This document shows, piece after piece, positions 34,838-52,606 of a DNA stretch of 64,000 nt. A program made the position numbers and the translations under genes. Under the pieces are notes generated by a model. The model saw nothing but the letters and a program-made list of their open reading frames with translations. It had not been told where the DNA came from and did no database searches. Each line of letters begins with the position of its first letter. The first letter of the stretch is position 1. Source of the stretch: Rugalucina vietnamica (Eukaryota; Mollusca; Bivalvia; Lucinida; Lucinidae); contig OZ024871.1 of assembly GCA_964017185.1 (NCBI GenBank), positions 5,231,714 through 5,295,713 on the forward strand, given 5' to 3'.

Positions 34838-36101
34838 TTAAGTCGGGGCCATCATAGAGTCTGACGCCCGACCCACCGGCGTGCAATTAAAGAAGGCAGC
34901 ATAGTTATCAACCATGATTGGGTTAAAAACTAAGCATGCAGACTGTCGCATAACATTCAAGTTATAACCTATACGTCTGTAACGTGATATGATTTTTCCG
35001 AACTGAAGAGAAAAATCATTTATTCCTTTAAGTTTCTTTAATTTGTAAACCAAGTCACCATAAAATTCAGGTTCCGAAAGGCCCTCACTTAAAAGTGTCT
35101 TTAACCCAACATTATATTTGGAAATCAATTCATAGTGTCTACGATAAAATTTAGAAAAGGTTTTTCGAAGTTTATGATACCGATAGCCCTGTTGGAGAAG
35201 TTTTGCCGTTAAACATTTATTTCGAGCGTTGAAGTCTGTAACATGATTGCAGACTCTAGCAAACCTAATAAGTTGCGAAATGTATACACCATAAGAAGCA
35301 CGACGAGGAACGTCACCATCCAAAAAAGGAAAATTTACTATATCAAAATCAAAGTCATCGCGCTTATCATAAATTTTAGAAGAAACAAATCCATTTGCAA
35401 CAGAAAGATGTAGATCTAAAAAGGGGGCTTCGGTATCTGAGATATTAGCTTTGTTCAACTGAAGTTCAGGTGGATAAATTTGATTGACCATACCTTCAAA
35501 ATAAGGGTTGTCAATGTTCAAAAGGTCATCGAGGTACCTAGATGTGGAATTAAAAGCCTCGATAACATCAGCTTGATTATCATGGTTAAGAGAATCCATG
35601 AAATCTCTTTCGTAGCAGTATAAAAATAAAACAGCTACGAGAGGTGCGCAATTTGTCCCCATCGGAATTCCAACAATTTGTCTGTATAACTTGGTCCCAA
35701 ATCTAATATAAATATTATCAAGGAGATAGGATAAGGCGTCGCACACATTCTGACATGACCAAAGGGTATACCGACTTTGGTCAGAGGAAGTGAAAAAAGC
35801 CTTTCTGTCATTACATGCCAAATAAAGTGAACCATAGTTTTTTAATGCCCTTTTGAAGGTCCACTCTATCAAATCCAGAAGTTTTTCTTTAATTAGATTA
35901 TGTGGTAATGTTGTATACAGAGTAGAAAAATCATATGTGGACAAGCTTGTCGCACGGAACTCTCTACACTTCAATTTACTGAGCACCTCACCAGAATTTT
36001 TTATTGACCAAAACCAATTTTTATTTGAAGTTTCATACACTGTCTCACAGTATCTTATAACATGAGATTTGATAGCAGTAAGACAAGAAGTTAATAATTT
36101 A
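34838..36101 (-). pseudogene. PLE reverse transcriptase, C-terminal two thirds (copy A)
   Basis: This is the RT domain of a Penelope-like retroelement, the family whose RT is closest to telomerase. Visible motifs in order are motif A (STYDFSTLYTTLP, catalytic Asp), motif B (GIPMGTNCAPLVA) and motif C (SRYLDDLLN, the YxDD box). A thumb and C-terminal region follow (about 200 residues) up to a TAA at 34838-34840 after SDSMMAPT. The frame is open for about 400 codons. The N-terminal endonuclease and first RT motifs are missing through 5' truncation, and a 1-bp loss near 36103 (relative to the copy at 60660) breaks the frame at the edge. ALVAVLF here replaces a residue that is Asp in the sister copy. 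It cannot be functional on its own. Confidence 0.88.
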
Positions 36102-38136: not shown

Positions 38137-39814
38137 AAATTGTCATTTCAAACGGGTCGCTTAACAGAACTTCAACAACAGAGCATTATAACTCTTTTAC
38201 CGAAAGTAGGTAAAGATTCTTGTTTTTTGTCAAACTGGCGACCAATTAGTTTACTAAACGTTGACTATAAAATAGCTTCAAAGGTAATAGCAAACAGAAT
38301 AAAATCCGTTTTACGAACAATTATAAATGAAACACAAGCATTAACATCGCAGGAACTGAATTCAAAACATCTTTGTTTGCTGATGATGCAGCATTTATTA
38401 TGGATGGTAAGAGAAAGTCCTTTGAAACTTTAATAAATATTATGGATAATTTTAGTTATTTATCAGGTCTATGTCTAAACACAAACAAATGTCAAGTTCT
38501 TCGAATAGGTTCTATGAAATTAAAATCTATTGAATATTTAAAACATAGAAAATACCTGTGGAGTTCTGACGAAGCAAAGTGTCTTGGAATGATTTTCAAC
38601 ACAGATAAACAAAAGCTGTTTTCATTAAATTTAGAACCAAAAATAAAAGACTTTGAAAAATGTTTACAGCAATGGCAACACAAAAAATTAACTTTGATGG
38701 GTAAAATCGTTGTAATAAAAAATTATGCACTTCCAAAACTCATTTATCCATTAACATCATTACCGAATCCTCCAAGAGAAACTGTCAAGCATTTAGAAAA
38801 TATCATGTTCAATTTTTTATGGGACGGTAAACCGGACAAAATAAAAAGAGAGACAATTACGCAGGACTACGAACGTGGCGGTCTTAAAATGATAGATATT
38901 GAGAGATTTATACTTTCACTCAAAGTCGGTTGGATAAAGCGCCTAACACAAACGGATAATAATAAACTATTGAGAAAAATTTATGAAAGTAATCTAATGA
39001 AACTCGGTGGTAATATTGTCTTTGAATCAAACCTAAACAAAGACGACATAAACTCTATTTTTTGCCAAATCATCCTTTCTCAGAGCATAAAATATGTCAA
39101 AGATATGTTTGATAAAGGGACACAGAGTTTTTACACATTTCCTGCTCTAAAAGAAAAATACAATCTACTGCCATCGGATTTTCTTAAATACTTAAGCATT
39201 TTAAATAGCATACCAAAAGCATGGAAACGCCAATTTAAAAATGAAGACCAAAATATCCAACCAGATGTAAAAATTATTCAAATGATAGAAGAAAATAAAT
39301 TAACCAATTCTTATATCTATAAAACGCTAATGCAAAAAACAGAAATAAACACTTCTAAACCGCGAGAAAAATGGAATAGTATCTTTTCAAATGAAAATCG
39401 TAACTGGAGAATAATTTACTTAGTCGCTCAGAAGTCAACAAATGACATTAGATTACGAAATTTTCAATATAAACATTTAATGCGCATAATCCCAACAAAT
39501 CAATTTTTGACCAAATGCCACATCACAAGCTCTACACTTTGTGATTTTTGTAATATGGAAATCGAGACACTTTCCCATCTATTTTGGGAGTGTATACATG
39601 TACAAGATTTCTGGACATCACTGCAAAGTTTTCTTAGCCAAACTCATATGAATATTGATATAAACATGAAAACAGTTACCTTCGGTATTTGTGATCAAAT
39701 TAATAAGAAAAATATAAATGGAAAGAACTTTATTATTTTCCAAGCAAAACATTTTATCTATAAACATAAACATCGTAAAACGAAACCAACACTAAATCAA
39801 TTGCCAATCAACAT
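38137..39814 (+). pseudogene. Tx1/L1-like LINE RT ORF, left part (truncated, deleted, interrupted)
   Basis: The sequence encodes the start of a LINE RT (TELQQQSIITLLPKVGKD, SNWRPISLLNVDYKIASKVI), then after an internal deletion at about 38340-38365 the SLFADDAAF catalytic box. The deletion removes the RT motifs with the first catalytic Asp and the QG box, and also shifts the frame. After that, about 480 codons are open: thumb, GKIVVIKNYALPKLIYPL, FLWDGK, and a C-terminal zinc knuckle (CDFCNMEIETLSHLFWEC) typical of L1/Tx1 ORF2. It is 5'-truncated at 38137. The ORF breaks at about 39814 (PINI), where the LTR element is inserted, and resumes at 50918. It is dead as an enzyme source. Confidence 0.88.
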
Positions 39815-41066
39815 TTTTGTTTATCTCATGTAATTAATGATTATGATTGATGAACATTATGTAAAATTAGACTCTATACAAGTCTGGACTTAAATTTCAG
39901 CTAGTTTCCAATTTCAGGTAGCTTTATGTACAAATTAATGATTAATGGCTATACATGGGAGATAACTCCTCCCAGCTACATAAGGGTAACTTTACCCGTA
40001 TACAAAATAAGAATTAGTGATTAATGAGCATACATGAGGGTCACTTCACCCCTATACAAATGAAAACTAATGAGTACATGGGAGATAACTCCTCCCAGCT
40101 GTATAAGGGTTATTTTACCCATATACAAACTAGATATAGCCACTTCATGCGATAGGCCATATGCAAGATGAGACATGTATTTGTATGTCTGCGAGAACAT
40201 ACGCAACTAATACAAATTGGAACATAAGTATATATACATGTACAAGCAAATGAGTAATAAATATATACAGGCAAAGGAGTAAAATATATCAGTGTGAGAT
40301 CTGATGGCTCGCGATCCTTCATCAGGAAAGGACTAGCTGCAACTATATAAATCTGCTGAACTGAAATAATATAATTGGAAAGCAAATAGATAGAACCAAA
40401 TCAAAACAATATAAAACAGAAAACTAAATCAAACTGAATATGAATGCTCTAGCTTGGAGCTAAACAAAATCAGGCTAAATGTAACTAAAACTGAGTTCTT
40501 AAGAACCACTCCAATGCCTAGACTTTACATGGAGGCCAATGTTAAATTTATGTATATATTCTATAGAAAAGTTTTACAGATAACTTACAACTGATCTATA
40601 GTTTTGAATTAACATGGTGGCATAGTCTATGCATGTGGCAGTCATTCCTAAAAACTGAGAATAAAATAAGGTAAGATAGTATGCAGCTACAGAAGCAATT
40701 ACTAGCTCTACTCTAAACATGCATAAACTTACAGTCAGACGGTTTTGGAATCTGCAATGACAAAATAGAAAAGGTTAATACCAAGCAAACATATATATAT
40801 TGATATACTATCAAAAATAACAAATTCCCAGAGACGGCAGTTTCAAAGAGCTAGCCATCTAAGGAAAATATGAATAATTTTGAGAATTGATCTTCATACC
40901 AAAAGTAGAAAACAGCTGAATTTCTTTGTTTTAAATCTTTTTATATCCGCGCTGTAAATTCTGTTAAGAACTATGAACCCAAAAGTGGTTCTTCAATCAA
41001 ACCTAGTATCTTGTTGCATACATGAGCCGAACCAAGGTGTAACAGTGGATTAACATTTATAGGAGA
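39815..41066 (-). other. Non-coding 3' region of the composite LTR element
   Basis: AT-rich, without genes. It holds the imperfect tandem repeat at 39952-40140. At 40837-40855 it has a copy of the GCAGTTTCAAAGAGCTAGC word that otherwise occurs only on the other side of the TatD ORF (42751-43199), tying this region to the same element. No LTR sequence is seen. Confidence 0.5.
39952..40140. repeat. Imperfect tandem repeat, three units
   Basis: Units start TACATG at 39952, 40031 and 40075. Units 1 and 3 share TACATGGGAGATAACTCCTC, CCAGCT, TAAGGGT, TTTACCC and TATACAAA. Unit 2 is internally shortened (TACATGAGGGTCACTTCACC). GGGAG..CTCCC can form a short hairpin in units 1 and 3. Confidence 0.75.
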
Positions 41067-42228
41067 CTACCAGGGCAAGTTATACAACCTGGCAGCGTTC
41101 CGATTGCAGAGCCTCACAATGTCAGTCACAGACATATTTAAGTGTCTGGCAGCCTTTTCTGCTACATCCAAAATGTCCCAGGGGTATTGAGCCAAATAAG
41201 AAGCGTCCGTCTCGAGCAATAGTCTTTTGTGACCATCCAAAGAGCTCAGGGCATTCATAGTTCTTGAGTCGTCAACAGTTACCGGGGAAATACTAAAATA
41301 ACAGTTGGGCATGTCAGTACTCCACTGTTTGTACTCCTCCTGCCCCCCAATGAAACAATGGCGGTGGATAGGATGGTTAAGCATATCCATATCCTCAAGT
41401 AGGTCGTGAACGTTTTTAGCCGCCAAAGTTGACATACCATGGTCCTCGCACATGTAAAACCAAGACTTTGTTCAGCTGTTTTGCCAGTTGAAAGGCAAGC
41501 CGCAGGAATCTGAGCTGTCCCTGGATTTTCTGACTACGACAGTATTCTTTATCATAACAGCCATGTAGACACTTCGTAGTTAGATCCAGGCCAACCTCTC
41601 CTATTCCCACAGCTTCCGGATATTTCTCCACCATCCCTTTCAACTGATCATACAATAATTCTACCTCAGTTTCCGTGATCATATGGGGGTGGACACCCAT
41701 CATTGCCTGAGGAGTGAAACTGGACAAAAGTGGTGTTAAGAGAGCTGGGTGAATCAGAGCAATGAGTCTTTTGGGGGGAAGCACAATATATTCACCCAGA
41801 GGAACAGGTTCCAAACCGGCCCTTCGGTCATATTCTCCGAGAAAGAAATATTCTCTCTCAGAGAAATTGAGGGGAGATGACGACGTGAGCTCCCTAACTG
41901 CTGCACAGCCCAGCAGCTCCAGGGGAGATCCCAGGCCCATCTCCTGACTGATGAACAAGAACATCCCATTCACCAGTAAGAACCAGGCCTGAAGGAGACC
42001 CTGCCCAGAGAACAGCTGATGCTGCCCATGCACATTACGGAGCTCCCGCTCATTCCCAGCAGACATATGACAATCTATGCATGAAGTGGCGGGGTTCATA
42101 AACCAGGGTAGATGAACCCTTAACATGTGGCGATATACATGGGGACAGTTGGCCCCACAGATTTGGCAATTGTCATAGAAGGCTCTTCCTCTCTTAGCTC
42201 TTGATGCCATCCTGCAAGTATAGAACAT
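41067..42228 (-). pseudogene. TatD-nuclease-like protein with zinc-finger N-terminus, frameshifted
   Basis: TatD proteins are metal-dependent deoxyribonucleases with a TIM-barrel fold. The ATG at 42228 or 42210 starts a zinc-binding-like segment (CQICGANCPHVYRHMLRVH, then CIDC). About 110 residues without a recognised domain follow, then TatD motifs in order: MMGVHPHM, AVGIGEVGLD, VLVLHVR. After a one-base frame slip near 41440 come IHRHCFIGG, LLLETDASYL and the family C-terminus LCNRNAARLYNLPW. The first TatD motif (the HxH metal ligands before GVHPH) is absent, so even the repaired frame might be inactive. A TTGCAG|G just before the ATG at 42210 could be a splice acceptor. It shares strand with gag-pol and lies within the same LINE interruption, so it is probably cargo of the LTR element. 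A host gene fragment is less likely. Confidence 0.8.
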
Positions 42229-43272
42229 GAAGGATGCCCATCGGCATGCTCCACACAAATATGGGGCCAACACTCAACACATGCATATATTCACATGTAA
42301 AATATCCTAAGTATCTGTTTCATGGAATGAATATAAATTCATTCCATGACTCAAATGGTAAAAAAATGCTAAGCAATGAAGCAATTTATAGTATATACAT
42401 GTAATATTGGCCACAACAGACATGAAATGCAGAATAATGATCATCAAGACAAAAAAACAAGCTAATATCGGCCATGAAAATCAGACATGAAAATGCAATG
42501 TTAATGGCCATATTGAGACAACAAATCATAACTATTGGCCATGAAAGACAGACTTCCTGAAATGCAGCATATGAAATACTGACCAATGATGAAATTTAAT
42601 ATAGTTACTTGCAAAAAATATGTTTCATTATATTTTCATACATTTACCATGTAAACATGGTAAATACCAAAATTCAGTGCAAATTTGCACTGACTAATCT
42701 TGAATGATAGAGAAGATGAGTCTCCAACACCATGTTTTAGCAATGATCATGCAGTTTCAAAGCGCTAGCGTGAATCATCACCAAAACAGATGTCAGCTTT
42801 TGTAATGCATGTGTCAAATGAAACCCTTGGATCACTTGATCAAGCACAAATTCCGCAGATACAAAGCACTAGCAAGAATAGGTACCAGATCAAGCTCCAA
42901 AATTGAAATAATGTATGAAAAATGCAGATGGACTGGTAATCATGACGGCACCATAGGCTGTCGCCATGCAGTTTCAAAGAGCTAGCATAGGCGACAACAA
43001 CTGATGACGTCATAACGTTGACAAAATTGCAAAACACATTGTGACAAAACATAGATCATGACGTCACTAACAGCAATCACCCTGCAGTTTCAAAGAGCTA
43101 GCAAAGGTGACAGCGACCACTGACGTCACTTATTCCACGTAACAAAAACAAACTATGACGTCACTGTCAGCGATTGTCCTGCAGTTTCAAAGAGCTAGCA
43201 TGAAGCAACAGCAGACACTGACGTCACTTACATACAACACACTGATCTCTGTACAAAATCATGGCAGATAGT
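42229..43272 (-). other. Spacer between integrase and TatD ORF
   Basis: No coding signal. The right half is the tandem repeat with CRE octamers described separately. The left half (42229-42740) is AT-rich, with GGCCAT(A/G)..GAAA words repeated loosely at about 42410-42545. It could act as the promoter of the downstream TatD ORF; this is inferred from position only. Confidence 0.45.
42751..43226 (-). promoter_or_regulatory. Tandem repeat with five CRE-type TGACGTCA octamers
   Basis: The word GCAGTTTCAAAGAGCTAGC (or a close variant) occurs at 42751, 42855, 42968, 43084 and 43181, spaced 97-116 bp. The palindrome TGACGTCA occurs five times: 43005-43012, 43059-43066, 43121-43128, 43156-43163 and 43219-43226. 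TGACGTCA is the consensus CREB/ATF binding site. The block is just downstream of integrase and 0.5-1 kb upstream of the TatD start on the same strand. A regulatory role is inference. Confidence 0.6.
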
Positions 43273-45135
43273 CTATTCTTGAAATCTGGCAGGTAATTTG
43301 ATCTTCCTTCCTACCCTTGTGGTCCTAGGCTCCAATGGGAGCTGAGTGTTGGAAATTTGCTCCTCATCAGAGTCAGATTCTGAGCCGCACTGTGAACCAT
43401 TGTGGGGATTGGGGTCATTCTCTACCAAGTCACTGCCCTCAGAAAGGCTCTTATCCCCAAACAGCATTGGCAATGTCATGTCTGGATCATCCCCCAGCAT
43501 GTATGGGAGTGTTTGATCAGGATCAAACAACCCACCATCTGGGAAATCATCCAGACCGATCTCTTCAGGCTCTGTGTCAAGACCCTCCTCTTCATCCATG
43601 GGCAAAGTGCTTAGAAATGAATGTCGCTTCCTTTGCAACCACAGTGGAAAAGAAGAATCTTCACACGGCTTAATACGGTCATGGTGCACAAATGTCACCC
43701 TACGTCTTCCCTGGAGTGCATAGACTGGGGGCCGAGCTCTTATAATTAAATATGGACCAATCCAGGGGGGTCTCATTTTGGAACTTATCCCTATCTGGGT
43801 AGCGGAGTCTCTTAAATAGACTACGTCGCCTTCCTTAAAGGACCTTTCAAATAGCCTTAGGTCGTAATCTCTCTTTTGACGCAGTTGAGTTGAGCCAATC
43901 TTCTCCCTGGCCAAATGATGTATCTTGGAGAGATTACTGGTAAGATTTGCGACCCAAGTTGGCGGGTCCTGGGGAGTATTTCTTGGTAGCCCAAGAATAA
44001 GATCGATTGGTTGGATAACCTCTCTCCCCAACATGAGCATATTGGCCGAAAAACCTGTTGACTTGTTTTTCATTGAATGAAGGGCCATTGAAATGAGGGG
44101 AAGATGCTCGTCCCAGCCTTTTACACCCCGAGAGACATAAGCTCTTATCATCTGTAGTATAATCCGGTTATAAACCTCAACCTGGCCATTACCAGAAGGA
44201 TGGTATGGTGTCGTCCTGGTCTGTGAGATCTCTATGACCTTGCAAAATGCCTTAAATAGATTGCTTTGGAAATTTTTCCCTTGGTCTGTGTGGACCTCCA
44301 GAGGACAGCCAAAGGTTACTATGAAGTGTTTTAAGAACGCCTCGGCTGTCAACTCTGCATTTTGGGCTGGTAACGCAGCCAATTCAACCCATTTCGTGAA
44401 TTGGTCCACCATGACCAATACATAGGCTGAGCCTGATTTGGACCTAGGATTTATAGGTCCAATGATATCCAAGTGAACACGTTCCATTGGATACCCTGCG
44501 TGATATAACTCTAGAGCAGTCCTGGGTGTTCGATTCCCTTTTTTGTTCTTGTTGCAATTTGCACACTGTTTAACATATATGTGACTATCTTTGGACATCC
44601 CATACCAATAAAATCTCTGCTTCAGTCTGTCTAATGTCTTTTGTTGGCCTAAAGGTCCAGAATCCCTCGAGTCATGGCAGTAGTACAGGACTCGAGGCCT
44701 GAGTTCCATAGGAACAATTAAGCATGCAGAGTTGCCTTTCTGGTTTGCCCAAGAATAGTACAAAATACCGTCCTGCAACACCAGATAGTCCCGGTTTAGC
44801 CAAAGAGCTCTTGTTTCAGGACTAGTGAGTTGCAGTTCACGAGTGGTTGGCTCATAAGAGTGCTCTAGCCAGTTTATCACTATGCCAATGTTAGGGTCTT
44901 CTGTTTGGGATCTTCTGAGTTCTGGGGCCGATAAACCTTCCATCCAATTGGAACCTGCCTGTGCCCCTGGCACAGCCTGATCTGCTAATTCAACCCCTAC
45001 ACTACGCACTGCCAAAGGGACAACATCATCCACATCCTCGTTGAACCGAGCCCACTGCTTATGTGCCCGCGTACAATAATGGCACCCCCACATGGGAGAT
45101 CCCTTTAATTCTGGCCAGCGCTGTAGCAGTCGCAT
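43273..45135 (-). CDS. Integrase of the gypsy-type element
   Basis: Integrase inserts the reverse-transcribed DNA into the host chromosome. The 620-codon frame contains an N-terminal CxxC-bearing spacer (WGCHYCTRAH) and the HH-CC zinc domain (CHDSRD.., then CANCNK). It then has a DDE core with Asp in LDIIGPI, Asp in HTDQGKNF and Glu in GNGQVEVYNR, and a GPY-type C-terminal motif (PPWIGPYLI). An acidic tail rich in E, D and G follows, with no chromodomain. It is in a different frame from the PR-RT-RH ORF, which it overlaps by 31 bp. The ATG at 45135 could be internal, and the two frames are probably one polyprotein broken by a small indel, although a second recoding event cannot be excluded. 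It ends just before the CRE repeat zone. Confidence 0.88.
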   Translation of the reverse strand: MRLLQRWPELKGSPMWGCHYCTRAHKQWARFNEDVDDVVPLAVRSVGVELADQAVPGAQAGSNWMEGLSAPELRRSQTEDPNIGIVINWLEHSYEPTTRELQLTSPETRALWLNRDYLVLQDGILYYSWANQKGNSACLIVPMELRPRVLYYCHDSRDSGPLGQQKTLDRLKQRFYWYGMSKDSHIYVKQCANCNKNKKGNRTPRTALELYHAGYPMERVHLDIIGPINPRSKSGSAYVLVMVDQFTKWVELAALPAQNAELTAEAFLKHFIVTFGCPLEVHTDQGKNFQSNLFKAFCKVIEISQTRTTPYHPSGNGQVEVYNRIILQMIRAYVSRGVKGWDEHLPLISMALHSMKNKSTGFSANMLMLGREVIQPIDLILGLPRNTPQDPPTWVANLTSNLSKIHHLAREKIGSTQLRQKRDYDLRLFERSFKEGDVVYLRDSATQIGISSKMRPPWIGPYLIIRARPPVYALQGRRRVTFVHHDRIKPCEDSSFPLWLQRKRHSFLSTLPMDEEEGLDTEPEEIGLDDFPDGGLFDPDQTLPYMLGDDPDMTLPMLFGDKSLSEGSDLVENDPNPHNGSQCGSESDSDEEQISNTQLPLEPRTTRVGRKIKLPARFQE

Positions 45136-47404
45136 GCCTCCAAAGGGTCCCTAATGCGACTGAGCGCGTCCGCGTTAATGTGTTCTGCCCCACGCCTATG
45201 AATCAGTTTGAAATCATACTGGGACAGTTCCTCAAGAAATCGAGCTAACTGACCCTCTAAATGCTTGAAACGGGTTAGCCAAACAAGGGAATTGTGGTCC
45301 GAGCGGATAAGAAAATGGCGTCCCAGCAAATAATGCCGAAACTGGCGGCAGAACTTTACGACAGCCAATAATTCCTTGCGCGTTGTGCAGTAGTTTCTGT
45401 GCTGCTTTAGGAGAACATGACTGGCAAAGCAGATGGGCTTTACTACTCCGTCTTGAATCTGGGATAATGCGGCCCCTATTTGATTACCACTTGCGTCAGT
45501 GTCCAGAATAAATTGGCCAGTAGGTGAAGGATGCGACAACATTGGGGCCGTTATAGCTAATTCTTTCAATTTTTCAAAGCAAGCCTGATGTTTACCTCTC
45601 CAATAAAATGAATCTGCATGAACAAGTGCATATAGGTCAGCTGAGACCTGAGCAAAATCTTTGATGTGATTCCTGTGATAGTTCATGAAACCAAGGAAAG
45701 ATTGCAGCTCTTTCACATTGGTGGGGACGGGCCAACCTTTGACAGCCTCAAGTTTGTCAGGAGAGATAGACACACCGTCTCCGCTCACCATTTTGCCAAG
45801 AAATTCTACCTTTTCTCTGAAAAAATGGCACTTGCGTGGTTTCAATTTGAGAGAATGCTCACGGAAACGGGTGAAAACCTTCCTGAGTGCTACTAATGTA
45901 TCCTCAAAATCTGTGCCAAGAACGATAATATCGTCCAAGTAAACAATAACTTCTTCCCAAGTCAAGCCCCGCATTACCAACTGAATAGCCCTAGAAAATG
46001 TTGCAGGGGCTGTACAGAGACCCATCGGTAAACGGGTCCATTGGAAACTCCCGAACCGGGTATTGAATGAAGTTTTATGACGACTACTCTTTTCGAGGGG
46101 GATCTGGTAGTATCCAGAGCAAAGGTCAAGGACACAGAACATGCTCTTGCCATAGAGGGAGTCCAGGCAGTCCTCAATCAATGGAAGGCTGTAATTGTCT
46201 TTGTATGTCTTGTCATTCAGGGCACGGTAATCAATACAGTATCTGAGCTCCCCAGTTTTTTTCCGCACAAGCACTGGAGCAGCTGACCATTCAGACACAG
46301 AGGGTTCAATAACACCTTGCTTCAAGAGTTTTTCAAGATACTCTTGTTCCTGTTTTTGAAACTGGAGTGGAGTGCGCCGAAATTTTACATTAATTGGGAT
46401 TTCATCATGTGTTTGGATTTTATGCTCCACTCCAGAATTGAGACATCCCAAATCAAAATCATCCTTAGAAAAAATATCTGAAAATTCAGTGATCAATTTC
46501 TTAAATTTAAATTTCTGATTTTCCGAAAGTTCGGAAATATTGTCTGAATACATTTTTTGTAAATGTGAAGGTATTTCTTCATGGTCCCTCTCTGTCTGTA
46601 GATCTTGTGCCTGGTGTGCTTGGTATGCATGGGCTAGCTCAGGGCCTACCGGATCCTCAGGGGAGATAATTTCATCTATTTCCGGTACAGGTGTGGCGTA
46701 CTCTGCATGACCTATTTTTTTACCTTTTTTGTAGGTCACAAAGAAATCAGAGTCGTTTATGACTTTCAAGGTCACATGCTGACCTTCACCATAAACACGA
46801 GATGCCAGAACATGTTTGGATGGAATACTCTCAACTACATAAGTACCCTCAATTGGCTGGTCCAGTTTAGCTTTTATGTAACTAACTGAGTGTGGCTGTA
46901 CAACGGTACGGCGTATAACAGTGACCTTGGAAAATTGGTAACCTGGTGTCATGGTAACATCAACATGCAAAGTATCCTCCCCAATAGTCAAAGTTTCATT
47001 ACCTAGATCAAGAATGCTAGAGGTAGCTTTCAAAAAATCAAGCCCAAGCAAACAGGGATCTTTAACTGGGGCCACACAGACGGTATGCAAGAAAGTCTGT
47101 GTTCCAACAGTAATCGGCACATTGTAAATAATACGCCCCTTTACAGGGTCTGTGCCAATGCCTGATAGAACACAAACAGGGCCCACTTGTTCTTGACTAT
47201 ATACTGGGGCAAGATAGTCATCACGTACTAATGTTACCATGGCAGCTGTATCCAGAATAGCCTTTGTTTCAATTCCATTAATTAATGTCTTAATGGAAGC
47301 AGTGAGATTTCTTTGGCTTGGTAGAGAAACCTCAAGCACCTCACAATGACGACTCAGATCTGATCGGACTAGGTGGTGGTCGTCTGTTGACCTAGTCCGT
47401 CCAT
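45105..47404 (-). CDS. Pol: aspartic protease, reverse transcriptase, RNase H
   Basis: The frame is in the -1 phase relative to gag and is open from the frameshift site at 47405 through the gag stop, so no own start codon is needed. Protease shows the catalytic motif as AILDTAAMVTLV (DTA instead of DTG/DSG) and the later LLGLDFL. RT shows YCIDYRALN, FCVLDLCSGYYQIP, RLPMGLCTAP and the catalytic VYLDDIIV. RNase H shows the acidic ligands in LDTDASG, RKELLAV and RSDHNSL. It ends after DALSRIRDPLE at a stop at 45105. All motifs expected of Ty3/gypsy Pol up to integrase are present without a stop. Confidence 0.92.
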
Positions 47405-47411
47405 GTTTAAA
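47365..47411 (-). promoter_or_regulatory. -1 ribosomal frameshift signal at the gag/pol boundary
   Basis: On the minus strand the heptamer T TTA AAC (47411-47405) is in the gag zero frame (codons AAT TTA AAC). A 5-nt spacer and a perfect 10-bp stem follow, CGGACTAGGT (47399-47390) with ACCTAGTCCG (47374-47365), enclosing a 15-nt loop. The gag stop TAG lies inside the 3' arm of the stem. After a -1 slip the frame is open straight into protease. T TTA AAC is a classic X XXY YYZ slippery site. Confidence 0.88.
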
Positions 47412-49978
47412 TTTTGGACGGGCTGTGAGGACCTTACATGGGCCTCGGGGCTTCTAGGTCTGTTTTGCTGTGGCACAGAATAATTGGGATCTGACCGACT
47501 TGGTGATTGACTCCTGGAATAAGCAGGAGAATTCTGGTACCTTTGTGGTGACCTACTTTGACCTTGGTCCTTATCCCTATATGGCCAAGGTGGATTCTGA
47601 TAGCCTCTGTACTGGCTAGGGGGTTGTTGCTGACTAGCCGCGGAATATCCCCGAGATGGTGGATACCCACAACTATCCGGGTACTGTGGATACCCACGAC
47701 TATCCGGGTATTGTGGGGAGTATCCCGAAGACTGTTGAGACCCCCGGTTACCAGCATACTGTGGAGGCCCTGGAGGGTATCCAGAGCTGGGGGCATACTG
47801 TGCAGAATAGTATCTATCCATTGCTGGGTTACCCCCATCTCTGGATGGGCTTCTGGGGTAATTTGGGGTGGCATAGCCCTGGTATGGGTAAGAACCCTGT
47901 CTGGAAGGTGAACGCCGGTCATATTGCTGACCACCACCAGGGGAACCGCCACGATAATAGTCCGGTGTCTTTTGTCTAGGTGGCCAACTTTGGCCTTGTG
48001 GACCGGCTGAATACCGTGACGGAGACCGTGATGGTGACCTGTAGTATGTGGGTGACCTTTGATTTTGAATAACTTTCACAAGGTCATCCACCTTTTTTTC
48101 TATGCCAGCTACCCGTTTTTCCTCTTCGACAGTGAACTGTCGTTCCTTAAAAGTAACCTTTCCTCCATTTATTGCCTTTTTATTGGCCATTATTGTTTTT
48201 ACCCGTTTGCAGGCATCATGAATGGTGGTCGGTGCCTCATTCATGACCATCATAGCTGCATCTTTATGCCTACAGCCACGAAGGAATGCTTCTGTAGAGA
48301 CTTGCTGTATTAGAGCCGATCTCTCATCTTTAAACCCGTCAAGTGTAATTGTCAAAATTCTCTGTAAGTAATCTTCAAGTGTCTCGTCATCGTCCTGTCG
48401 TATCGTTGTGAGTCTTTGCCTTGCAGCTATGGGTTCTTCTTTAAGGTCAAACCGCAAAGCAAGTTCCTGTTTGAGTCCATTATAATTGTCTTTGTTATCA
48501 GACCGAGCAGCATACTCTAAAGCTTTTTCAGTTAGACAGTCATACAGTCTGTCAAGTTTCTTCTGGTCCGTCCACCCCTTCCTGGTAGCAATCCTGTCGA
48601 ACTTCATAATAAATGACGACCAGGATTGACCAGCAGAGTCCCCTGAAAATAACTGCAGTCGAGGGGGCGGGGGTGAATTACTCTGACTGGAGCTATCAGC
48701 CGAGGTCGATCGTCTGGATCGGGATTTCCTGTGCCTCGATCGACCTCTGTCCCCGGTCATCTGTCCGGTTGAAGTCTCAGTCTGTGACATTTGTACAGTC
48801 TGTATTTGTCCGGTCACTGATTGAGGTTGTCCAGTCTGTGTTGTATTCTGTATAGATGCAGCTGGTGGCTCAGTATTTGGAATGCTGTCTGCCGCAGTCA
48901 AAACTGTGTGTTTTGCTGCTGCAGCAACAGGATTGATGGTACTTGAAAATATCGCAGACTTTGGAATAGCTGCTGCAATATTGTCAATCAACAATTGCTG
49001 AGGATGTTTGGGTTCTACATCTAAAGGGATGATTGATGATATAGGCTGAGATACAGATGTGAAGTGTGTGGGCGTAGAAACAGGTATATTTAATGAGACT
49101 GGTTGTGTCACAATTGCTTTTGCTGCATTAGGTGTAGCTAACTGGCCAAATGTTTGTACAAGTGAGCTTTTCTGATCCATTTGTACTCCGCTCGGTGGGG
49201 GTGTATTTGGTTGTGTCTTATATATAGGTAAATTGTGAGAAATTGGTACAGGTGGGGGTATCCATTTGCTGATATCCGCCATGAAGGTGTCATGACCTGA
49301 CAATTTTGTTTGCATCTCCGATGTTGTTTTGTTTTGTTGAGACAACTGAGATTGTAGCTTGTTGCTATTTTGTTGAAGTTGATCCATGCTCTGGGTAAGT
49401 AATGTTAACTTCTCTGTCAATGCCATACCCAAATTGTGCATTTGGCTGTTCAAGTGGTCAAACTGATGCCCCAAAATTCCTACGGATTCCTCCAGTGGAC
49501 CTTGTACAGGGTGTATTTTAAATTTCCCTTGTGTCATTGTTTGTCCCGTTTGAGGAGGGGGCAGCTGGTATAGACCATTGTCCATAGTCTGTGCAATAGT
49601 AGTCACAGTTTGTTCTGTTGTGACAGTCTGTCCAACTGTTGTAGCATGTTCATTAGTGATTGTCTGTCCAAACGTCACTGTTTGTCCCGGTGACAAAGTA
49701 TTTTCCGTCAAGGGATTTGCAGGGGGAAATTGCATTTTTTCAGTCTGATCTGGGTCAACAGATGCATGGAATGTTATTGACAGGAGCCCCTGGTCAATAA
49801 AAGCTTGCCAATTTTCAGTCTGAAGTCTTATTTGGGCCAAATGGGTAACCGTAATCTTTGGGCGTTGGCCTGCCAATACTTCATTCCTCAAAGCAATAAT
49901 ATCAGAGGCAGACTTAGGCCCTATGCCTTCTAGGGTCTCCAAGTCTGCTTGAGAACATGTATACAAATTCATAGCCAT
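47369..49978 (-). CDS. Gag with helix-hairpin-helix N-terminus
   Basis: The frame has 869 codons from the ATG at 49978. Residues about 5-35 form a ComEA-like helix-hairpin-helix signature (SQADLETLEGIGPKSASDII), normally a non-specific DNA-binding fold. Residues about 95-135 have a tandem QTVT-type repeat. Residues about 165-235 are Gln-rich heptad-like sequence, likely coiled coil. About residue 420 there is an Arg/Ser stretch. Residues about 440-620 carry the retrotransposon gag capsid domain (SWSSFIMKFDRIATRKGW; LEDYLQRILTITLDGF; AFLRGCRHKDAAM). The last ~220 residues are Tyr/Pro/Ser/Arg-rich low complexity with a repeated YPDS(R/C)GYP. No CCHC zinc knuckle is visible, so nucleic-acid binding may rest on the RS/Tyr-rich tail or the HhH. 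It ends in TAG inside the frameshift hairpin. Confidence 0.9.
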   Translation of the reverse strand: MAMNLYTCSQADLETLEGIGPKSASDIIALRNEVLAGQRPKITVTHLAQIRLQTENWQAFIDQGLLSITFHASVDPDQTEKMQFPPANPLTENTLSPGQTVTFGQTITNEHATTVGQTVTTEQTVTTIAQTMDNGLYQLPPPQTGQTMTQGKFKIHPVQGPLEESVGILGHQFDHLNSQMHNLGMALTEKLTLLTQSMDQLQQNSNKLQSQLSQQNKTTSEMQTKLSGHDTFMADISKWIPPPVPISHNLPIYKTQPNTPPPSGVQMDQKSSLVQTFGQLATPNAAKAIVTQPVSLNIPVSTPTHFTSVSQPISSIIPLDVEPKHPQQLLIDNIAAAIPKSAIFSSTINPVAAAAKHTVLTAADSIPNTEPPAASIQNTTQTGQPQSVTGQIQTVQMSQTETSTGQMTGDRGRSRHRKSRSRRSTSADSSSQSNSPPPPRLQLFSGDSAGQSWSSFIMKFDRIATRKGWTDQKKLDRLYDCLTEKALEYAARSDNKDNYNGLKQELALRFDLKEEPIAARQRLTTIRQDDDETLEDYLQRILTITLDGFKDERSALIQQVSTEAFLRGCRHKDAAMMVMNEAPTTIHDACKRVKTIMANKKAINGGKVTFKERQFTVEEEKRVAGIEKKVDDLVKVIQNQRSPTYYRSPSRSPSRYSAGPQGQSWPPRQKTPDYYRGGSPGGGQQYDRRSPSRQGSYPYQGYATPNYPRSPSRDGGNPAMDRYYSAQYAPSSGYPPGPPQYAGNRGSQQSSGYSPQYPDSRGYPQYPDSCGYPPSRGYSAASQQQPPSQYRGYQNPPWPYRDKDQGQSRSPQRYQNSPAYSRSQSPSRSDPNYSVPQQNRPRSPEAHVRSSQPVQNLNMDGLGQQTTTT

Positions 49979-50637
49979 TGTGATAATACAAAATATCAAT
50001 TACAGGTGAGCAAAACAAATAGACAAAATAACAGGTAAGCAATTCAAAGCAATTGGAATAAAGACATGGGGAAAATAACAACTCAAACACATTCAAATTT
50101 TCCAAATTAAATGAAAAGCATGCGTCACTTGCAAAACGAAAAATGTTCTGCGCTTGACGAAGTCAAAATACACCTGAAAACATGAAAATGAACACAGAAA
50201 TTAGCTGCTATGTAGGGACTATAATACTCGTAATTTACAGCCTCAAAAATTAAGGAATTACCTGTCAAAATATCAAAATTTTGCCTAAATTTTAGAAATC
50301 CCACGTTTTTCACAAACAAAACGGAAATAGCCTCAATTTGACAGCTAAATTTTCATTTGCTTTCCAAATGTGCCAAAAACGAACCGGAACAGACAATTTC
50401 GGAAAATTCGATAATTTTTCGGCGAATTTTATCAAATTTACGTAAGAATTAGCATTTAATGACAAAGAAACTTAGAAATAAGGAATTTTAGAATTTTTTT
50501 TGGCTCAAATTTAAAGAGAAAGACCAAAAATTAAGAAAATTGCATTAAATTTCAAAAACTGTCTCCCTAAAAATTTTACGGAAATTTGCGCAGCTAAAAA
50601 TAGCACGAGGGGACTGAGGGAATCACTTCAATTACCT
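49979..50637 (-). other. Untranslated leader between primer-binding site and gag
   Basis: About 660 bp of AT-rich sequence with no ORF of note, as expected of an LTR-element leader. A packaging signal may lie here but none can be recognised. Confidence 0.6.
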
Positions 50638-50655
50638 TTGTAATCCTCGTCGCCA
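50638..50655 (-). other. Candidate primer-binding site
   Basis: The minus strand reads TGGCGACGAGGATTACAA immediately after the LTR end CATCACA. Starting TGG directly at the LTR boundary is the normal position and first triplet for a tRNA primer site (complement of CCA). The tRNA species was not identified. Confidence 0.65.
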
Positions 50656-50917
50656 TGTGATGTGAATCAACCTACCTGAATTCAGGAAACCGCTCTCGCA
50701 GGTACGTCTGTTCAGGTTGAAGTCTAGGAGGTTGAATCCCGAATATCGCTCACACTCTAGCACGGGCTTTTCCCAGGTCACGTGATGACGGAGGTTGCCG
50801 GAAATCGTCGGAGATACCCGATGGTGTTGTTGCTGTATTATCGTCCTCTGAAGGCGCTCCTCGCTCCCGATGACTGCCTACAACTAATCTGCGAGTCCAA
50901 CACTTTATTTCGTCACA
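50656..50917 (-). repeat. 5' LTR (262 bp)
   Basis: The minus strand starts TGTGACGAAATAAAGTG and ends TTCACATCACA, giving TGTGA..TCACA termini. It abuts the primer-binding site on one side and, on the other, the base where the LINE ORF resumes. An AATAAA lies near its start. No second copy was found, so the call rests on the termini, the primer-binding site and the LINE junction. Confidence 0.7.
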
Positions 50918-51035
50918 AATCTATATTGAGAAAGAAATAGCTTTGTCAAACGACAAATTACATCTCTTCGAAGAAAAATGGAATGCTTTTTTACAAGCAT
51001 TAAACTGAATAATAGAACAAATTGTCCACAGAGTG

Positions 51036-51251: not shown

Positions 51252-52606
51252 AATTCCTTTTTTGGATGTTGACGTTCTTCGTCGTGCTTCTTATGGTGTA
51301 TAAATTTCGCAACTTATTAGGTTTGCTAGAGTCTGCAATCATGTTACAGACTTCAACGCTCGAAATAAATGTTTAACGGCAAAACTTCTCCAACAGGGCT
51401 ATCGGTATTATAAACTTCGAAAAGCCTTTTCTAAATTTTATCGTAGACACTATGAATTGATTTCCAAATATAATGTTGGGTTAAAAAGGTACAAGTAGAC
51501 AAAGATCAGGAAAAGGCGCAATCAGAAAGAGATTCCCACTCCAAAAACCGAAAAACCGAGGTGGGAAAAAACCAAACTAACAATCAGGCACTTATACCAT
51601 GAAACATGTCCTAAGCCGAATGAGCAGCTATTTTCCCAATAGGTGGCCACTCAGTTACCTTAACTTAATTAAGAATATAAAAACATACATAAGGCGCCAA
51701 CAGCACAAAAATATTTTTAAAATTTTAAGTGAGGGCCTTTCGGAACCTGAATTTTATGGTGACTTGGTTTACAAATTTAAGAAACTTATAGGAATTAATG
51801 ATTGTTCTTTTCAATTCAGAAAAATCATAACACGTTACAGACGTATAGGTTATAACTTGAATGTTATGCGACAGTCTGCATGCTTAGTGTTTAACCCAAT
51901 CATTGTTGATAACTATGCTGCCTTCTTTGATTGCACGCAGGTGGGTCGGGTGTCAGACTCTATGATGGCCCCGACTTAAAGCTATTCATTTTAGTTGGTT
52001 GGGGCCGGAGCTCCTTGTCTGTTGCTTGGCCCACCGGGGTCCAACTGGTGTTTTTCTTTTGCTCCGGAGTTAGTAGGTTATTCGGCGCCCAGGGATCTCC
52101 ATCGTCGGGCAGCTTACTCAATCTGTGAGTCCTGGGTTTTGATTCATCAGGATGTTTATCTTGATTTATATGTTTGTTCTTGATGATTCATTGACTAGTT
52201 AGAGATTCACCACGAGGACCGAAGAACTAAATGTTATGAACCACTGCAGAAGCTGAGGGTGAGGTTAGGCGCCTGTAAAACCGGTTAAAGCCCGCCAGTA
52301 ACTTTGTGTTACTGATCATTCCAGTGCGATACTTCTGTGATGGTTCTTTTTGTTTTATGTCTTGGTGTTTAAAATTTTATTGTGCTGTTGGCGCCTTATG
52401 TGTGTTTTCATAGTTTTAGTTAAGTTAATGTAACTGAGTGGCCACCTATTGGGAAAATAGCTGCTCATTCGGCTTAGTAATACGATATGTTTCATGGTAT
52501 AAGTACCTGATTGTTAGTTTGGTTTTCTCCCACCTCGGATTTTCGAGTGGGAAGCTTTTTCTGATTGCGCCTTTTCCTGATCTTTGCCTACTTGTACCTT
52601 TCAATA
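51252..52606 (+). mobile_element. Naiad-like PLE copy B/C, right piece with inverted insert
   Basis: This continues the RT coding sequence from the left piece (DGDVPRRASYG at about 51264 onward). There are a few lesions: an in-frame TAA (TATGGTGTATAAATTTC) where other copies read YIS, and an altered LRKAFSKFY. It is interrupted at 51486 by an inverted PLE 3' tip and resumes at about 51720 with SEGLSEPEFYGDLVYK. It ends at ASDSMMAPT-TAA (51979), followed by the full 3' UTR to CTTGTACCTTT at about 52600. Confidence 0.88.
51486..51719 (-). mobile_element. Inverted PLE 3'-end segment inside the PLE RT
   Basis: The sequence begins AAAGGTACAAGTAGACAAAG and proceeds through the terminal hairpin (CCCACTCC..GAGGTGGG) and GGTGGCCACTCAGTTACC to GGCGCCAACAGCACAAAAAT. 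This is the last ~230 bp of the same family in opposite orientation. It sits between GTTGGGTTAAA and TTTTAAGTGAGG of the RT frame and replaces about 5 bp (GACAC in copy A). No duplication of target bases is visible. Confidence 0.85.

What the first reader, a model, noticed from the sequence alone, without database searches (positions are those of the whole stretch)
39815..50917. LTR retrotransposon apparently carrying a TatD-type nuclease gene
The LINE ORF is interrupted once, from about 39814 to 50918. Everything between, gag-pol and the TatD ORF on the same strand, therefore seems to have arrived as one insertion. The right boundary is exactly the LTR start. A shared word (GCAGTTTCAAAGAGCTAGC) occurs on both sides of the TatD ORF (40837 and 42751-43199). 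A DNase with a zinc-finger N-terminus as retrotransposon cargo would be an unusual accessory module.
Basis: partly seen in the sequence, partly recalled or inferred. Interest (0 to 1): 0.78.

Follow-up and report, generated by a model that had tools for sequence, protein, structure and literature searches.

The report
Retrotransposon carrying nuclease and RNA hairpins
A mobile element in this large genome carries, besides its copying genes, a zinc-finger nuclease gene bracketed by rows of RNA hairpins, an arrangement kept in dozens of relatives and so probably a working part of the element.

Summary
Window 39802-50902 (minus strand) is a Ty3/gypsy-like LTR element with gag, pol and a TatD nuclease gene after integrase; this copy is broken (3' LTR missing, TatD and pol damaged). 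In the same 1.09-Gb genome 34 of 36 listed loci with an integrase at least 65% identical have TatD 0.8-2.9 kb downstream on the same strand, in at least six subfamilies; LTR pairs 97.6-100% identical enclose it in six copies. TatD keeps its metal ligands and two C2H2 motifs, has dN/dS 0.15-0.18 between subfamilies, and starts just after a 3' splice site in 23 of 23 full-length copies, so it is probably expressed like env. The "shared word" is the constant loop of an RNA hairpin array: stems covary (48 cells versus 18 shuffled), with 42 G-U against 2 A-C cells; other subfamilies have other loops at the same place. Best reading: hairpins on genomic RNA serve an element-encoded factor, perhaps TatD itself; that last link is inference. 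The loop also occurs in 33 loci without TatD. My paper searches found no such element.

The parts
39802..50902 (-). LTR retrotransposon copy, truncated at its 3' (left) end; 3' LTR and about 527 bp before it missing
   Evidence: alignment to C12 copy L005/L006, LTR search finds one LTR only in the window
50658..50902 (-). 5' LTR, 245 bp, TG...CA
50643..50655 (-). primer binding site TGGCGACGAGGAT, matching the 3' end of tRNA-Ser(GCT) (tRNA sequence recalled)
   Evidence: sequence printed; tRNA identity recalled
47369..49999 (-). gag ORF, weak Retrotrans_gag and helix-hairpin-helix matches (below cut-off)
45105..47339 (-). pol part 1: protease (weak), reverse transcriptase, RNase H
43273..45135 (-). 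pol part 2: integrase (H2C2, rve); in another frame than part 1 in this copy
   Evidence: single 1355-aa frame in L005
43156..43226 (-). RNA hairpin unit 1 (loop core 43181-43199), bounded by TGACGTCA
43059..43128 (-). RNA hairpin unit 2 (loop core 43084-43102)
42943..43012 (-). RNA hairpin unit 3 (loop core 42968-42986)
42825..42902 (-). RNA hairpin unit 4, diverged loop (42855-42873)
42726..42794 (-). RNA hairpin unit 5 (loop core 42751-42769)
42212..42230 (-). putative 3' splice site (pyrimidine-rich tract + CAG), 1 nt before the TatD ATG
   Evidence: window sequence printed; same site in C12 copy L023
41067..42210 (-). TatD gene with two C2H2-type motifs; broken here (deletion of about 263 bp at 41698/41699 removing HxH, frameshift near 41450); intact 468 aa in C12
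40822..40870 (-). RNA hairpin unit 6, after the TatD stop (loop core 40837-40855)

Best explanation
A lineage of Ty3/gypsy-like LTR retrotransposons that has kept, in the place where retroviruses have env, a third gene for a two-zinc-finger TatD nuclease of the HxH (TATDN2/TATDN3) type. SHOWN: linkage to integrase in many loci, LTRs around it, conserved active-site residues, purifying selection between subfamilies. STRONGLY INDICATED: TatD is translated from a spliced subgenomic mRNA whose acceptor lies 1-11 nt before the ATG; the unspliced RNA, from which gag-pol is read, keeps an array of hairpins between integrase and TatD (5 in A, up to 8 in B) and 1-2 after TatD, selected as RNA with a constant loop and freely changing but paired stems. 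INFERRED: the loops are multimerised docking sites for an element-encoded protein, most economically the zinc-finger TatD protein, so that the product of the spliced mRNA acts on the unspliced RNA (logic of Rev/RRE or of CERV in Cer1), for export, selection for packaging, or structure-specific RNA cleavage. My step probabilities: cargo 0.97; RNA-level function of the hairpins 0.9; spliced TatD mRNA 0.75; recognition by an element-encoded factor 0.55; that factor being TatD 0.35.
For: Linkage 34 of 36 loci (both lists hold only the best-scored candidates); 12 of 26 more distant integrases (40-46%) have a PF01026 match downstream on the same strand within 8 kb. LTR pairs 97.6-100% around TatD in six copies, 4-bp target duplications in five of those six (ends shifted by 1-2 bases by eye in two). 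Catalytic H202, H204, E293, H341, H372, D423 invariant in 26 of 26 proteins over 420 aa; TatD domain matched over its full length in 6 of 6 representatives; dN/dS 0.175 (A-B), 0.147 (A-C, dS 1.9), 0.153 (E-F) against 0.084 for RNaseH-integrase A-B. Integrase and TatD identities fall together (rank correlation 0.87 over 31 hand-picked pairs). Splice acceptor 23 of 23 copies in six subfamilies, background 159 of 1454 ATGs. Hairpins: 48 both-sides-changed cells versus 18.2 shuffled, covariation score 0.528 versus 0.244, slides 0.088-0.146; own arms -26.6 versus other units' arms -14.8 kcal/mol in A/B, and the sense strand pairs better in 42 of 42 representative units; G-U 42, A-C 2, Watson-Crick 181, other 31 cells. 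Other subfamilies have their own loops at the same place. Human TATDN2 is described as a structure-specific RNase (PMC12709183, passages); CERV, encoded by a spliced Cer1 mRNA, is needed for genomic RNA export (PMC10309623, abstract and one section).
Against: No transcript was seen, so splicing and hairpin formation in cells are untested, and no GTRAG donor was found in the window's 5' leader. The loop is not exclusive to TatD elements: 28 of 76 exact loop words lie in them and 48 lie in 33 other loci, none within 15 kb of a listed TatD or integrase row; the one read (L053/L054) carries four such hairpins in non-coding sequence without a convincing pol or TatD match. Eight of 16 exact words of the subfamily-E loop also lie outside the four known E copies. 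That TatD reads the loops rests on co-location and co-divergence only. One of 16 units (B1) folds better as antisense; unphased windows over the A array are no more extreme on the sense than on the antisense strand (mean z -1.25 and -1.80); a unit's own arm is its best partner in only 8 of 16 A/B units and the three short 3' units show little difference; the number of pairs changed on both sides (11) is reached by 57 of 500 shuffles. Within subfamilies dN/dS is uninformative or high (1.47 from very few changes for L029-L033, 0.54 for L036-L052).
Confidence: 0.5

Rival explanations
1. The hairpin array is read by Gag (packaging) or by a host export or stability factor; the TatD nuclease is a separate accessory enzyme acting on cDNA ends, abasic sites or RNA:DNA hybrids. 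The two merely share the same stretch.
For: TatD enzymes act on ssDNA, RNA and AP sites (PMC10085689 passages); M-PMV RNA binds host NXF1 directly (PMC10309623 section); the A/B loop also occurs in 33 loci without a listed TatD nearby.
Against: In the A and B copies fetched, loop hits lie only between integrase and TatD and just after TatD, none in leader, gag or pol; loops differ between subfamilies in one host, which is odd for a shared host factor.
Confidence: 0.33
2. TatD is a structure-specific RNase whose substrates are the element's own hairpins: it trims or destroys genomic RNA, a copy-number brake or a processing step.
For: Conserved active site; TATDN2 reported as structure-specific RNase with RNA endonuclease and 3' exonuclease activity (PMC12709183 passages); few copies of the window's own family, 9 LTR matches.
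Against: No direct evidence of cleavage; a self-destroying activity should be lost from successful copies unless it pays.
Confidence: 0.15
3. The array is DNA-level: an internal promoter or enhancer of TatD built of TGACGTCA (CRE-like, recalled) sites, dyad symmetry being a by-product.
For: TGACGTCA or near copies flank most units in subfamilies A and B; the array sits upstream of TatD.
Against: G-U cells 42 against A-C 2 and better pairing of the sense strand in 42 of 42 units point to RNA; the printed units of subfamilies D, E and F lack this site; so do the 3' units.
Confidence: 0.08
4. Chance: TatD is a host gene or pseudogene next to, or caught with, this one insertion.
For: The window copy alone lacks a 3' LTR, so by itself it could not exclude this.
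Against: 34 loci with the same order and strand; six copies with an LTR pair shown to enclose TatD.
Confidence: 0.01

Closest known systems
Bdelloid rotifer Vesta/Juno LTR retrotransposons with DEDDy exonuclease or GDSL esterase as ORF3 (PMC5408684; passages, including part of the abstract)
   Same: An enzyme gene, in one case a nuclease, captured as ORF3 of LTR elements, where other lineages have env; ORF3s said to be expressed from spliced messages.
   Different: Different nuclease (DEDDy, not TatD); the word 'hairpin' does not occur in its text; it reports no significant departure from neutrality within the genome.
Cer1 of C. elegans with CERV (PMC10309623; abstract and section 15 read)
   Same: Protein from a spliced mRNA of an LTR retrotransposon, with a putative zinc-binding loop, acting on unspliced genomic RNA.
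   Different: No nuclease activity and no hairpin array are described in what I read.
HIV-1 Rev/RRE and M-PMV export element (recalled; also mentioned)
   Same: Structured RNA in unspliced retroviral RNA that marks it for export, in Rev's case through a virus-encoded protein.
   Different: One compact structured element, not an array of separate constant-loop hairpins; Rev is no enzyme (recalled).
Human/medaka TATDN2 and E. coli YcfH (PDB 1YIX)
   Same: TatD domain with HxH motif and ligands; 1YIX is the best solved match (E 1e-7); TATDN2 described as structure-specific RNase.
   Different: Host genes, not mobile; the two C2H2-type motifs of the element protein were not compared with TATDN2.

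Membership tests
Ty3/gypsy LTR retrotransposon | PR-RT-RNaseH-INT order in pol | tested here: met
   (protease matches below cut-off, RVT_1, RT_RNaseH, H2C2, rve in this order); one 1355-aa frame
Ty3/gypsy LTR retrotransposon | Two LTRs with TG...CA and short target duplications | tested here: met
   Met for sister copies: six LTR pairs, 4-bp duplications in five. Not met by the window copy, whose 3' LTR is missing
Ty3/gypsy LTR retrotransposon | Placement in a Ty3/gypsy clade by RT phylogeny | not tested
   no reference set of retroelement RTs was held; the name rests on domain order and Pfam matches
TatD nuclease (PF01026), HxH group | TatD domain above cut-off with HxH, E, H, H, D ligands | tested here: met
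   domain in 6 of 6 representatives; residues in 26 of 26 proteins over 420 aa; the window copy itself lacks HxH
TatD nuclease (PF01026), HxH group | Nuclease activity | not testable with these tools
   sequence only
Env-like third gene of retroelements | Position between pol and 3' LTR | tested here: met
Env-like third gene of retroelements | Expression from spliced mRNA | tested here: inconclusive
   acceptor in 23 of 23 copies; donor not found, no transcripts
Env-like third gene of retroelements | Membrane glycoprotein | tested here: not met
   Pfam finds TatD in the C-terminal part and C2H2-type motifs lie at the N-terminus; no membrane predictor was run; it holds env's place but is not an env
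Rev/RRE-type export pair | Element protein binds the RNA structure and drives export | not testable with these tools
   needs biochemistry; works-like claim only

The most novel reading that the evidence does not exclude
A self-recognition system of a retroelement: each subfamily encodes a zinc-finger TatD nuclease and carries a cognate array of RNA hairpins whose constant loop is its private address; loop and nuclease diverge together, and other, non-coding repeats have acquired the same private loop (33 other loci for the A/B loop, 8 for the E loop) and ride on, or are policed by, the matching element.
Probability: 0.25. Interest if true: 0.93.

Novelty: new variant of a known kind. Interest (0 to 1): 0.78.

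Why it matters
Captured enzymes in the env place of LTR elements are known, but what they do is mostly open. Here the enzyme is under purifying selection between the subfamilies that could be measured and comes with a large, covarying RNA hairpin array at a fixed place, so the role of an accessory nuclease becomes directly testable: which protein reads the loops, and is specificity private to each subfamily. If TatD reads them, it is a new kind of protein-RNA pair in a mobile element; some TatD/TATDN2 genes annotated in genomes may then be element genes.

Tried and rejected
Rejected: (1) one-off capture of a host TatD gene. (2) Intron loss as the reason for the 263 bp missing from the window's TatD: the stretch is coding in the C12 copy and carries the HxH motif, so it is a deletion. 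(3) Known RNA family: no Rfam match up to E = 1 in 39700-43400. (4) Loop pairing with a complementary stretch in the element: the loop search on both strands of the window and L005-L022 (up to 4 of 19 mismatches) gave sense-strand hits only. (5) Viral relatives of the TatD protein: none confirmed in IMG/VR by the close-relative search. (6) MAFFT alignment of subfamily C hairpins (A2) misaligned some units; replaced by the alignment-free arm test. (7) Papers: TatD + retrotransposon 14 papers, TATDN2 + transposable element 6, TatD + gypsy 3; nothing in their listed titles or abstract starts describes such an element; of these I read passages only in PMC6962438 and PMC5840709. Searches for accessory ORFs, RNA elements, TATDN2 as RNase and TATDN2 expansion gave the analogues named; beyond those only listings were seen. 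Not done: structure prediction (its rule does not list loci fetched by whole-genome search, and the window's own TatD is broken), comparison with other animals (none held), LINE copies, loops D and F in the whole genome (not completed), a tree of integrases.

Dropped rows and choices: integrase tier 2 was scripted for 26 of 46 rows against 30 of 90 PF01026 rows; the other 20 rows have no TatD or PF01026 row within 10 kb. The whole-genome lists hold only the best-scored candidates (one search scored 85 of 3198), so counts are of listed rows. The 31 identity pairs were picked by hand. The splice background counts ATGs of near-identical copies more than once. The 16 units of alignment A1 come from the window and one B copy, out of 55 distinct units; units of C-F are representatives under 85% identity.
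Full report
WHAT IS IN THE WINDOW. The window lies in an unnamed 1.09-Gb genome of 47 contigs (C3:5231714-5295713). The element is on the minus strand. Its 5' LTR is 50658-50902; a primer binding site TGGCGACGAGGAT lies two bases inside it (sequence; the match to tRNA-Ser(GCT) is recalled). gag, then pol in two overlapping frames, then two overlapping TatD pieces follow. At 50903 a LINE-like C-terminus, 3' UTR and A-rich tail resume (by eye); the LINE ORF on the left has a zf-RVT match and runs to about 39800. There is no LTR on the left: no direct repeat links the ends, and a whole-genome search with the LTR gives a single LTR here but pairs on C12, C15 and C6 and two part matches at C3:9.45M (9 matches in all).

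THE SISTER COPY. On C12 the element has both LTRs (L005/L006): 3' LTR at L005 982-1226, 5' LTR at L006 2857-3101, 99.6% identical over 245 bp, 4-bp duplication ATGC, a 1355-aa pol frame and a TatD frame of 489 codons whose likely ATG gives 468 aa. Window homology starts at 39802, so the window copy has lost about 770 bp with the 3' LTR. Its TatD has lost about 263 bp with the IDSHFHLD motif, the frame being kept, and has a frameshift near 41450; pol changes frame near 45130. The C15, C6:53.67M and C1:98.87M copies have internal deletions.

TATD IS A STABLE THIRD GENE. The 468-aa protein finds 91 rows in the genome, among them long open copies at 100, 78, 61-62, 43-47 and 32-33% identity. The integrase half of pol finds 86 rows (only the best candidates are scored there). 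Of the 40 rows at 65% or more, 38 have a TatD row on the same strand within 8 kb; merged to loci, 34 of 36. The exceptions are C1:61.1M, whose TatD lies 10.7 kb away, and C11:55.3M. Of 26 rows at 40-46% examined, 12 have a PF01026 match downstream on the same strand, ten of them within 1.9 kb, in open frames of up to 829 codons; the other 14, and 20 further rows, have none listed. This is consistent with a trait of one clade; no tree was built. LTR pairs enclose TatD in six copies: C12 99.6%, C11:32.07M 99.6%, C6:16.27M 100%, C3:5.53M 100%, C15 97.6%, C1:98.87M 98.3%; C6:53.67M has a further pair, 93.7% over 189 bp; for C1:89.7M and C3:1.74M no pair was found in the stretches fetched. Identical LTRs mean recent insertion. 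Integrase and TatD identity fall together (rank correlation 0.87, 31 hand-picked pairs), as expected of co-inheritance, with TatD evolving faster.

THE PROTEIN. In 26 of 26 proteins over 420 aa the residues H202, H204, E293, H341, H372 and D423 are invariant; the region aligns with E. coli YcfH (1YIX, E 1e-7); their role as TatD metal ligands is recalled. 23 of 23 proteins over 460 aa have two C2H2-type motifs in about the first 65 residues; Pfam gave no match there for the six representatives. dN/dS is 0.175 between A and B, 0.147 between A and C and 0.153 between E and F; D-E is saturated, and within subfamilies the values are uninformative or high. RNaseH-integrase A-B gives 0.084. HxH puts it with TATDN2/TATDN3 rather than TATDN1 (PMC10085689, passages).

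EXPRESSION. In 23 of 23 full-length copies, in six subfamilies, a YAG preceded by at least 10 pyrimidines in 15 lies 1-11 nt before the TatD ATG; 159 of 1454 other ATGs in the non-coding flanks meet that rule (at 11 or more: 17 of 23 and 60 of 1454). The sequences around the site differ between subfamilies, which suggests that the site is kept by selection. No GT(A/G)AG donor was found in the window's 5' leader. Spliced expression is therefore likely, not shown.

THE SHARED WORD IS A HAIRPIN LOOP. Five units lie between integrase and TatD and one after TatD in A; up to eight and two in B. On 16 units (A1) 11 of 16 consensus pairs are changed on both sides in some unit; against shuffles 48 cells versus 18.2, score 0.528 versus 0.244, 0 of 500 shuffles as high, and slides give 0.088-0.146 (the count of changed pairs alone, 11 versus 9.0, is reached by 57 of 500). 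Paired cells hold 181 Watson-Crick, 42 G-U, 2 A-C and 31 other, which marks the sense RNA as the selected molecule. The sense strand is more stable in 15 of 16 units by folding and in 42 of 42 representative units of all subfamilies by arm pairing. An alignment-free test gives own arms -26.6 and foreign arms -14.8 kcal/mol in A/B and the same direction in C, D, E and F; the own arm is the best partner in 8 of 16 (A/B), 8 of 11 (C), 4 of 4 and 3 of 3 (D), 3 of 4 (E), 3 of 4 (F); for the three short 3' units the difference is small (-14.4 and -13.0). Windows over the arrays have mean z from -1.25 to -2.65; pol, TatD, leader and 3' non-coding of A from -0.33 to 0.04; in A the antisense strand of the array is as extreme (-1.80), in C-F it is weaker (-0.77 to -1.26). 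Rfam has no match.

OTHER SUBFAMILIES HAVE OTHER LOOPS. At the same place subfamily C has AGCTCTTTGAGTT, D has CTTCAATAGGGTGTACTTGTGAAG and CAGTGTGATATTCTT, E has AAATCCTGTGCGTAGCT, F has AGCTGGTATGCTTGTTG, with 1-2 units after the TatD stop in each (in D with the second loop). One host, one position, different loops: this points to a reader that diverges with the element.

THE LOOP ALSO LIVES ELSEWHERE. The A/B loop core occurs 76 times exactly (reversed control 0); 28 are in known TatD elements, 48 in 33 other loci, 15 of these as pairs 102 or 106 bp apart. None of the 33 lies within 15 kb of a listed TatD, PF01026 or integrase row. The one that I read has four such hairpins in 651 bp, each better folded on the sense strand, and in 1.75 kb no pol or TatD match beyond one at E 0.66. 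The E loop occurs 16 times: 8 in the four known E copies, 8 elsewhere, again not near a listed row; these 8 were not read. Either these are non-autonomous families that use the same signal, or the loop serves something wider. This counts against a strict TatD-only pairing and for a signal that is worth copying.

MECHANISM. I commit to a cis-trans pair: TatD protein from a spliced mRNA, hairpin array in the unspliced RNA, the array read by an element-encoded factor. TATDN2 is reported as a structure-specific RNase (PMC12709183, passages), which makes TatD a natural candidate, and CERV of Cer1 shows a protein from a spliced element mRNA acting on genomic RNA (PMC10309623). Whether binding serves export, packaging or cleavage is open.

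NOVELTY. Enzymatic ORF3s, including a DEDDy exonuclease, are known from bdelloid LTR elements (PMC5408684, passages); a TatD nuclease with zinc fingers and a hairpin array did not turn up in my searches. Filed as a new variant of a known kind.

Noticed in passing
L053 (C1:96734150-96734800), L054, and 32 other loci listed: A non-coding repeat (one locus read) with four hairpins bearing the same loop as the A/B elements, flanked by A-rich runs, no convincing pol or TatD match in 1.75 kb; possibly a non-autonomous partner family.
   Followed up: partly
L009 6640-6720 (C6:53.67M copy): The 5' LTR of this deleted copy is preceded by a longer stretch resembling the T-arm and acceptor of a tRNA-Ser (recalled), as if the primer tRNA had been copied beyond the usual primer binding site.
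   Followed up: no
L005 940-985 and window 39800/50903: Both the window copy and the C12 copy seem, by eye, to sit in the C-terminal coding part of related LINEs; possible target preference or just LINE abundance.
   Followed up: no
window 49880-49999 (minus): Gag begins with a helix-hairpin-helix-like stretch (PF00633, E 9e-4, below cut-off).
   Followed up: no
window 1843-32255: Satellite of about 84 copies of a 363-bp unit, 99% matches, filling nearly half of the window.
   Followed up: no
window 51485-52601 and 34838-36040: Inverted repeats of 65-110 bp (92-93%) around a fragment sharing its C-terminal part (ending SDSMMAPT) with the ORF at 34838-36040.
   Followed up: no
G000 C11:14782201, C4:66900634, C2:17608179, C3:7503967: Four TatD-like places in frames of about 538 codons, 32-33% identical to the element protein, without a listed integrase match nearby; maybe a further mobile family.
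   Followed up: no
PMC6962438 (giant squid genome), figure legend passage: A predicted TATDN2 gene is drawn among transposon-like genes near Hox genes; such annotations may be element genes of this kind.
   Followed up: no
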